The notes beneath the pieces were generated by a model. It was not told the DNA's origin, made no database searches, and saw only the letters and a program-made list of their open reading frames with translations. Source: Leadbetterella sp. (GTDB lineage: Bacteria > Bacteroidota > Bacteroidia > Cytophagales > Spirosomataceae). From it: DNA of 42,752 nucleotides. Positions 42,097-42,752 of this stretch are shown here, one piece after another; positions within the stretch are counted from its first letter, which is position 1; each line of letters opens with the position of its first letter. The translations under genes were made by a program, and so were the position numbers. The DNA lies in contig JAIPAJ010000009.1 of NCBI GenBank assembly GCA_021740125.1, positions 1-42,752 on the forward strand. The letters are read 5' to 3'.

Positions 42097-42301
42097 TGAG
42101 GTTTAATTATGAAAAAAACAACTGGCCACTTCTAGTAATCATTCCAAACGTCGAACCGCTACTCTCCTGGGACTAGGCAACCTCGTTTGATCCAAGTACT
42201 TCTGATGGCTATCTGAAGGCGGTGCGACTGATGCAAAATACCTACACTTAACAGATCTGTTAAATTACCTATAAAGCAATAAAACCTCAAAATTTACACA
42301 A
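42097..42301 (-). repeat. 5S-like tandem unit A (most degenerate, distal copy; downstream hairpin lost)
   Basis: Shares TGAGGTTTAATTAT..., AACGTCGAACCGCTACTCTCC, GATCCAAGTAC and CTTAACAG with units B and C; minus strand carries CTTGGATCAA...GGAGAGTAG of 5S. Confidence 0.8.
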
Positions 42302-42309
42302 TGAGGTTT
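42282..42309 (-). terminator. Copy of the 5S terminator hairpin between units B and A
   Basis: AAACCTCA...TGAGGTTT inverted repeat; weaker minus-strand U-tract. Confidence 0.65.
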
Positions 42310-42505
42310 AATTATAATAAAAAACTGGCGGGCACGCCTAGTGATCTATCGAAACGTCGAACCGCTACTCTCCCAGAACTCGGCGCCCCCGTTTGATCCA
42401 AGTACCATCGCCGATGCGGTAGGAGTCGCTTACGACTGGTGCGGCATACCGACTTAACAGCTCCGTTCAATTACATATATAAAAAAAACTTCATTGCTTA
42501 CACAA
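42302..42505 (-). repeat. 5S-like tandem unit B
   Basis: 80 bp (42294-42373) identical to unit C (42498-42577); minus strand GATGGTACTTGGATCAAA...GGGAGAGTAG as in 5S rRNA. Confidence 0.88.
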
Positions 42506-42513
42506 TGAGGTTT
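42481..42513 (-). terminator. Copy of the 5S terminator hairpin between units C and B
   Basis: AAACTTCATTG-cttaca-CAATGAGGTTT (11 bp, one wobble) with A8 at 42481-42488 (U8 on minus). Confidence 0.85.
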
Positions 42514-42695
42514 AATTATAATAAAAAACTGGCGGGCACGCCTAGTGATCTATCGAAACGTCGAACCGCTACTCTCCTGTATCTAGCCGCCCGCGATTGA
42601 TCCAAGTACCATCGGCGGTGCGGGTGGTGCGGCATACCGACTTTACAGCTCTTTTCATTTACCTCTAAAACAAAAAAACCTCACTGTTTACACAA
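42506..42695 (-). repeat. 5S-like tandem unit C
   Basis: As unit B; minus strand CGCCGATGGTACTTGGATCAA...GGAGAGTAG; lacks the AGTCG hairpin insert of unit B. Confidence 0.88.
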
Positions 42696-42703
42696 TGAGG
42701 TTT
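42672..42703 (-). terminator. Rho-independent terminator of the 5S rRNA gene
   Basis: AAACCTCA-ctgtttacacaa-TGAGGTTT with A7 at 42672-42678 (U7 on minus strand). Confidence 0.85.
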
Positions 42704-42718
42704 AATTATAATAAAAAA

Positions 42719-42752
42719 CTGGTATCTACCTACTCTCCCGGGTTTGATCCAA
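42719..42752 (-). rRNA. 5S rRNA, 3' end only (continues beyond window edge)
   Basis: Minus strand TTGGATCAAACCCGGGAGAGTAGGTAGATACCAG matches the helix IV/loop E/helix I 3' portion of 5S rRNA. Confidence 0.8.

What the first reader, a model, noticed from the sequence alone, without database searches (positions are those of the whole stretch)
42097..42752. Tandem array of three truncated, structurally elaborated 5S-like units downstream of a 5S rRNA gene
Sequence: after the 5S 3' end and its terminator, the minus strand continues with three units (offsets 205, 204 and 190 bp). Each has 5S-like GATGGTACTTGGATCAA and GGAGAGTAG blocks (the first block is only partial in unit A) and a CCAG-like 3' end, but no recognisable 5' half of 5S. 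Each carries extra sequence at defined places. Knowledge: 5S helix IV/loop E contains these blocks. Inference: the units arose by duplicating 5S plus its terminator and then diverged as structured RNAs. They may be a family of small RNAs expressed by read-through of the rRNA operon, or a pseudogene array. I do not know a named element with this architecture.
Basis: partly seen in the sequence, partly recalled or inferred. Interest (0 to 1): 0.85.

Follow-up and report, generated by a model that had tools for sequence, protein, structure and literature searches.

The report
Decaying 5S rRNA copies with hairpin inserts
Next to a ribosomal RNA operon this Lacihabitans genome carries three broken, decaying copies of the 5S rRNA gene; the copies are of a kind already reported in other bacteria, but the extra pieces in them are 14-16-nucleotide hairpin-forming modules that also turn up, cleanly inserted, in broken tRNA copies, repeat elements and a reverse-transcriptase gene of related bacteria, which suggests an undescribed kind of very small mobile DNA.

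Summary
The array is real: three units, spacings 205/204/190 bp, each a 5S copy lacking the first ~37 nt plus a 5S-type terminator. Four sister Lacihabitans genomes and two other genera carry such units after 5S genes, in independent assemblies, one of them complete. Such "5S remnants" (truncated, with insertions, multiple copies behind the intact 5S, separated by terminators) were reported in 2021 for Peptococcaceae and Pseudoalteromonas (PMC7812874). The 'structured RNA family' reading is not supported: window units fold no better than shuffled sequence (z +0.2, +0.6, 0.0), their terminators decay, and unit number and content turn over between sister genomes ~90% identical in the next gene. 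The new point is what the 'elaborations' are. Removing two modules (CGGTTCGACGTTTCGA, CACTAGGCGTGCCC) restores the 5S 3' end with 0-1 mismatches. The same or similar 14-17-nt modules, mostly GGG plus a mini-hairpin, occur in truncated tRNA-Thr arrays, a pseudo-tRNA, terminator loops, repeat elements with empty and filled copies, and as three 13-14-nt inserts in a group II-type RT gene whose empty homologues are known. The 18-mer form was not found outside the family (phylum sample of 399 genomes). How the modules move is unknown; single-strand, REP-like mobility is my best guess, untested.

The parts
42719..42752 (-). 3' end (34 nt) of an intact-type 5S rRNA gene, cut by the contig end
   Evidence: complete 5S genes with nearly the same 3' end in L023, L024, L026, L027 by Rfam
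42672..42702 (-). intrinsic terminator of the 5S/rrn operon (hairpin -14.7 kcal/mol)
42529..42656 (-). unit B: truncated 5S copy (aligns to 5S nt 38-102)
42581..42596 (-). unit B, loop-D insert (TCGCGGGCGGCTAGAT)
42553..42568 (-). unit B, module e (CGGTTCGACGTTTCGA), replaces one G of GTAGGTAGAT
42534..42547 (-). unit B, module f (CACTAGGCGTGCCC), clean 14-nt insert in TAGAT|GCCAG
42481..42512 (-). terminator of unit B (-7.8 kcal/mol, one mismatch)
42325..42468 (-). unit C: truncated 5S copy with the most inserts
42414..42437 (-). unit C, insert with hairpin AGTCG-TAAG-CGACT before the GCGATGGTAC block
42378..42391 (-). unit C, loop-D insert (CGGGGGCGCCGAGT), resembling the reverse complement of module f
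42349..42364 (-). unit C, module e
42330..42343 (-). unit C, module f
42280..42308 (-). terminator of unit C (-8.1 kcal/mol, internal mismatches)
42122..42261 (-). unit A: most diverged truncated 5S copy
42201..42217 (-). unit A, hairpin-like insert (TTCAGATAGCCATCAGA) in place of GATGG
   Evidence: hairpin in the fold
42172..42185 (-). unit A, loop-D insert (CGAGGTTGCCTAGT)
42143..42158 (-). unit A, module e with one change
42127..42137 (-). unit A, shortened module f (TACTAGAAGTG)
42077..42103 (-). remnant of a terminator after unit A (no stable hairpin)

Best explanation
The array is a set of non-functional 5S rRNA gene remnants. SHOWN: units derive from nt ~38-107 of 5S plus the rrn terminator and are tandemly repeated behind the intact 5S; the extra sequence consists of discrete modules of about 14-16 nt, and subtracting two of them restores the 5S 3' end; the same modules occur as inserts in unrelated sequences of other genera of the family. 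INFERRED: units multiplied and turn over by recombination between tandem copies and between rrn operons, and are tolerated because they lie behind a working 5S and its terminator. The modules are very small mobile hairpins that enter neutral duplicates of RNA genes, loops of repeat elements and dying genes. My most likely mechanism for their movement is insertion of a folded single strand by a hairpin-recognising enzyme, as proposed for REP elements, followed by spread through recombination of the host repeats; this last step is a guess (about 0.25). The stated confidence is for the array being 5S remnants with inserted modules, not for that last step.
For: Array homologues. Subtracting e and f from units B, C and G002c37, and e from G005c103_2, gives the 21-nt 5S end with 1, 0, 1 and 1 mismatches. 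e alone (G005c103_2), f-type alone (G023 units) and both (window) all occur, so they are independent pieces. The 18-mer of e: 23 hits in 13 of 151 family genomes, reversed-pattern control 0; among 399 phylum genomes only G000 and G063, both in this family. The 16-mer with <=1 mismatch: about 140 hits against about two dozen for the control. Unrelated contexts: tandem truncated tRNA-Thr copies, up to five; pseudo-tRNA with three inserts, one being module c; loop of a terminator and an Rpn-like gene; repeat element with 17 empty and 8 filled copies; RT gene with three inserts against 93%-identical uninterrupted homologues, one insert the exact reverse complement of f and one a clean +14 without target duplication. 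One orthologous repeat locus differs between two genomes for both inserts (L146/L153). Common design: 9 of 12 modules fit 'GGG + stem of >=3 bp', 0.44 expected. No function seen: z-scores, terminator decay.
Against: The GGG-hairpin rule was read off most of the modules used to test it, so its P value (3e-13) is optimistic; only one module (TCGGAGTGGCGACCC) was found afterwards, and it fits. Module e, the G008 form of d and one G023 module fail the strict rule. TCGGAGTGGCGACCC was then found only in that repeat element or its homologue in another genus, not in a new context. Units with the full loop-D hairpin do fold better than chance (z -2.6 to -3.4), so some units could be expressed RNAs. 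Some unit terminators are intact (-13.7, -13.8 kcal/mol). Some e matches in high-GC genomes are ordinary coding sequence. No enzyme was linked to the modules: Y1 transposase genes occur in all 17 genomes tested and no module lies near the 20 regions examined.
Confidence: 0.8

Rival explanations
1. A family of functional small RNAs derived from 5S, transcribed by read-through of the rrn operon; the inserts are conserved helices.
For: Several units keep terminators; units with the complete loop-D hairpin fold significantly (z -2.6 to -3.4); by eye two segments of G005c103_1 are nearly complementary (fold).
Against: Window units z about 0; decaying terminators; unit numbers 3, 1, 2 and at least 3 in four orthologous arrays, three of which flank genes ~90% identical; none in L025, L028 or L022; the same inserts occur in non-RNA contexts.
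Confidence: 0.1
2. The modules are not mobile: an ancient, already elaborated 5S-like paralogue was inherited and is now decaying, and matches elsewhere are chance or homologous repeats.
For: Units of Lacihabitans and G066 share modules at matching 5S positions; the f and site-2 modules recur within one repeat element.
Against: The same e 16-mer sits at the same GGTAGA site in tRNA-Thr copies of other genera; exact f is one of three short inserts in an RT gene with empty homologues; exact c lies in a pseudo-tRNA.
Confidence: 0.12
3. Assembly artefact at a contig end near a repeated rrn operon.
For: The window ends inside the 5S and the source is a fragmented, 77%-complete genome; most homologous arrays also lie at contig ends.
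Against: The same arrangement occurs in independent assemblies of several strains, and in complete or near-complete genomes: G066 on one contig, tRNA arrays in G093 on a 6.8-Mb contig.
Confidence: 0.02

Closest known systems
5S rRNA remnants (pseudogenes) of Peptococcaceae and Pseudoalteromonadaceae, PMC7812874 (RNA 2021)
   Different: Another phylum (the paper's main text does not mention Bacteroidetes); several separate ~14-16-nt modules instead of large insertions; modules also occur outside 5S copies
REP elements (GTAG- and CGTC-tagged palindromes) with TnpA_REP/RAYT (PMC3733652, PMC8266576)
   Same: Short unpaired head plus hairpin; found in intergenic regions, inside ORFs and inside other palindromes
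   Different: Modules are 14-17 nt with stems of 3-5 bp (REPs 20-40 bp, stems mostly 6-9 bp); head GGG or CGGT, not GTAG/CGTC; many different sequences at low copy; none found near the Y1 genes examined
Rickettsia palindromic elements (RPE), as described in PMC3733652
   Same: Palindromic inserts inside genes
   Different: RPEs are REP-sized or longer and many are in-frame in functional genes; here the RT gene is frame-broken
Repetitive hairpin-forming and double-hairpin elements of mitochondria (listed, e.g. PMC2800124, PMC4478555; not read in detail)
   Same: Small hairpins reported as spreading elements
   Different: Bacterial chromosome and, from my own knowledge, smaller than most of those elements

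Membership tests
5S rRNA remnants (PMC7812874) | High similarity to 5S but missing one or both terminal parts | tested here: met
   units align to about nt 33/38-107
5S rRNA remnants (PMC7812874) | Located downstream of a normal 5S at the distal end of an rRNA operon | tested here: met
   in relatives; in the window only the last 34 nt of the 5S are present
5S rRNA remnants (PMC7812874) | Insertions in the 5S-like core | tested here: met
5S rRNA remnants (PMC7812874) | Multiple copies, each preceded by a terminator | tested here: met
5S rRNA (Rfam RF00001) | Reaches the gathering score of 38 bits | tested here: not met
   no RF00001 match in the window; only the intact 5S genes score in relatives
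Structured small-RNA family | More stable fold than shuffled sequence | tested here: not met
   for the three window units; met only for G005c22, G008_2 and G008_3
Structured small-RNA family | Expression | not testable with these tools
   no transcript data
Structured small-RNA family | Compensatory base changes beyond controls | not tested
   units too heterogeneous and few; some compensated hairpins seen by eye only
REP elements | GTAG or CGTC head | tested here: not met
   heads are GGG or CGGT
REP elements | Head plus hairpin | tested here: met
   9 of 12 modules by a strict GGG rule, partly post hoc
REP elements | Length 20-40 bp and high copy number per genome | tested here: not met
   14-17 nt, mostly 1-18 copies per genome
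REP elements | Association with a RAYT (Y1) gene | tested here: not met
   Y1 genes present, no module within the ~1.6-kb regions of the 20 examined

The most novel reading that the evidence does not exclude
This family of Cytophagales harbours an undescribed class of mobile DNA only about 14-16 nt long (a GGG-type head plus a mini-hairpin) that inserts without target-site duplication into hairpin loops, duplicated 5S and tRNA genes and protein genes; it would be among the smallest mobile elements known.
Probability: 0.45. Interest if true: 0.85.

Novelty: new variant of a known kind. Interest (0 to 1): 0.6.

Why it matters
As an array it extends published 5S remnants to the Bacteroidota and warns annotators against calling such units new RNAs. 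If the modules are mobile, they offer filled and empty sites of about 14 bp in many contexts, making it possible to ask how the smallest DNA pieces move, and whether expansion segments of rRNA and tRNA can arise from inserted mini-hairpins that later spread to the working gene, as the 5S paper proposed for larger segments.

Tried and rejected
Rfam at gathering and at permissive threshold: no family. Plasmid and phage collections: no match. Viral contigs: 0 hits for one pattern and 1 chance coding hit for the 18-mer. Single donor gene for the modules: in the single-contig genome G066 exact c and f have only inserted copies, and e has only the two array copies, one with a mismatch. HUH/Y1 link: no discrimination and no flanking modules. 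Prediction that a newly found module recurs in new contexts: not borne out for TCGGAGTGGCGACCC, found only in the same or a homologous repeat element. A search for papers on Lacihabitans and 5S found none.

Full report
OBSERVATION. The window is a whole contig (C200, 42,752 bp) of a 77%-complete genome. At its high end, minus strand, lie the last 34 nt of a 5S gene, its terminator and three units with spacings of 205, 204 and 190 bp, as reported. B and C are 85% identical over 163 nt; A is more distant. Rfam finds nothing there, as the 5S is cut by the contig end and the units score too low. Aligned to the 5S of the genus, the units begin at about nt 33-38 and run to the 3' end, so they lack about the first third rather than the whole 5' half.

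RELATIVES. The genus is Lacihabitans (record titles). Similar units follow 5S in G002 (L. soyangensis, two operons), G005 (CS3-21, two), G003 (CCS-44, two) and the MAG G008 (three plus a partial fourth); other operons of the same genomes have none. Two other genera have them: G023 (at least three units) and G066 (two operons, a nearly full-length copy). In G000, G002, G005 and G008 the array precedes the same helicase gene. That gene is 89.9-90.8% identical among the first three and 81-82% to G008, yet the arrays hold 3, 1, 2 and at least 3 units: fast turnover.

FUNCTION. The window units fold no better than dinucleotide-shuffled sequence (z +0.21, +0.63, -0.03); only G005c22, G008_2 and G008_3, with a complete loop-D hairpin, are clearly below -2. 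Terminators are -12.8 to -15.3 kcal/mol at the true 5S but -7.8, -8.1 and 0.0 at window units B, C and A; a few units elsewhere keep a good terminator. I read this as relaxed constraint. Expression could not be tested.

THE ELABORATIONS ARE MODULES. The 5S end GGGAGAGTAG-G-TAGAT-GCCAG becomes GGGAGAGTAG[CGGTTCGACGTTTCGA]TAGAT[CACTAGGCGTGCCC]GCCAG. Taking out the modules (e and f; e replaces one G) gives back the 5S end with 0 or 1 mismatches in four units of three genomes. Loop D carries a further 14-nt piece, cleanest in G008_1: ATCAAA[CGGGGACGCCTAGT]CCCGGG. In G008 and G005 there is a second, complementary piece on the other side of the loop.

SAME MODULES ELSEWHERE. The 18-mer CGGTTCGACGTNTCGATA has 23 hits in 13 of 151 family genomes with 0 in the reversed control; among 399 genomes of the phylum only two family members have it. 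Contexts: one to five tandem truncated tRNA-Thr copies directly before an intact tRNA-Thr, with the module at G[..]TAGA as in the 5S copies; repeat elements with terminal inverted repeats; the loop of a terminator and an Rpn-like gene; loops of dispersed hairpins. With one mismatch allowed, the variable position is mostly number 11, and one genome has a longer tandem run of the 8-mer CGNTTCGA. Module c (TCGGATGCGACCCC) is one of three inserts in a pseudo-tRNA beside an intact tRNA in G064 and is in both arrays of G066. Module f sits in the loop of a repeat element of G084/G069: 8 filled copies (48 nt) and 17 empty (35 nt), tandem in one further copy. An alignment of the copies shows a second filled/empty site, and one locus with matching flanks is filled at both sites in G069 and empty at both in G084; exchange between repeat copies could do that as well as insertion and loss.

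CLEAREST CASE. In G066 a group II-type reverse transcriptase gene is broken by three inserts within about 100 nt: GGGCACGCCTAGTG (exact reverse complement of f), CGACTGTCGCCCAT (net +14, no duplication) and GGGGCCGCCTAGGC. Uninterrupted homologues (93% protein identity in G030, 84% in G090) give the empty sites; two inserts are net +13. That the gene is of the group II intron type is my reading of its sequence; no family search was run on it.

COMMON DESIGN. Read in one orientation most modules are GGG followed by a mini-hairpin; 9 of 12 satisfy a strict form with 0.44 expected from shuffles, P 3e-13. The rule came from most of these same modules, so the number is optimistic; one module found later fits (shuffle rate 0.02). 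e, the G008 d module and one G023 module fail.

KNOWN. Truncated 5S copies with insertions behind normal 5S, sometimes multiple and each preceded by a terminator, were described in Peptococcaceae and Pseudoalteromonadaceae and called likely untranscribed pseudogenes (PMC7812874). The window array is that kind of thing. REP elements also have a short head plus hairpin and occur in ORFs and other palindromes, but are 20-40 bp with GTAG or CGTC heads (PMC3733652) and may be mobilised by TnpA_REP (PMC8266576). Y1 genes are in all 17 genomes tested, with no module nearby, so a REP-like mechanism is only an analogy.

VERDICT. Array: real, remnant, known kind, new phylum for it as far as the paper found shows. 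Modules: real as shared inserts; mobile status probable; mechanism open.

Noticed in passing
L037 and L038 (G007), directly behind the rrn terminators: A sequence that looks like a group II intron with a reverse-transcriptase ORF follows the 5S terminator in two of the three rrn operons of the complete Lacihabitans genome G007; not verified with Rfam.
   Followed up: no
L057 (G093), L058 (G081), L056 (G063), L059 (G162): One to five tandem ~75-bp truncated tRNA-Thr copies, each with module e at the D-loop position, sit immediately upstream of an intact tRNA-Thr(CGT).
   Followed up: partly
L132 (G064), upstream of a tRNA gene: Full-length pseudo-tRNA copy with three different GC-rich inserts of 14-17 nt beside the intact tRNA.
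   Followed up: partly
L097 (G035): Run of the 8-mer CGNTTCGA in about six tandem copies, suggesting that module e is a two-copy form of an 8-nt repeat.
   Followed up: no
L113, L114, L115 (G587): Long palindromic elements whose two arms each contain CGGTTCGACGCTTCGA.
   Followed up: no
L072-L076 (G008): Dispersed element of about 430 bp with inverted ends AACTAAAGTTTCGG carrying f-like modules (CACTAGGCGTGCCC, ACTAGCCGTCCGCC, CCTAGGCGGCCCC).
   Followed up: partly
G000:C97 (L022): A second rrn end of the window's genome has an intact-type 5S (cut by the contig end) without any array behind it.
   Followed up: yes
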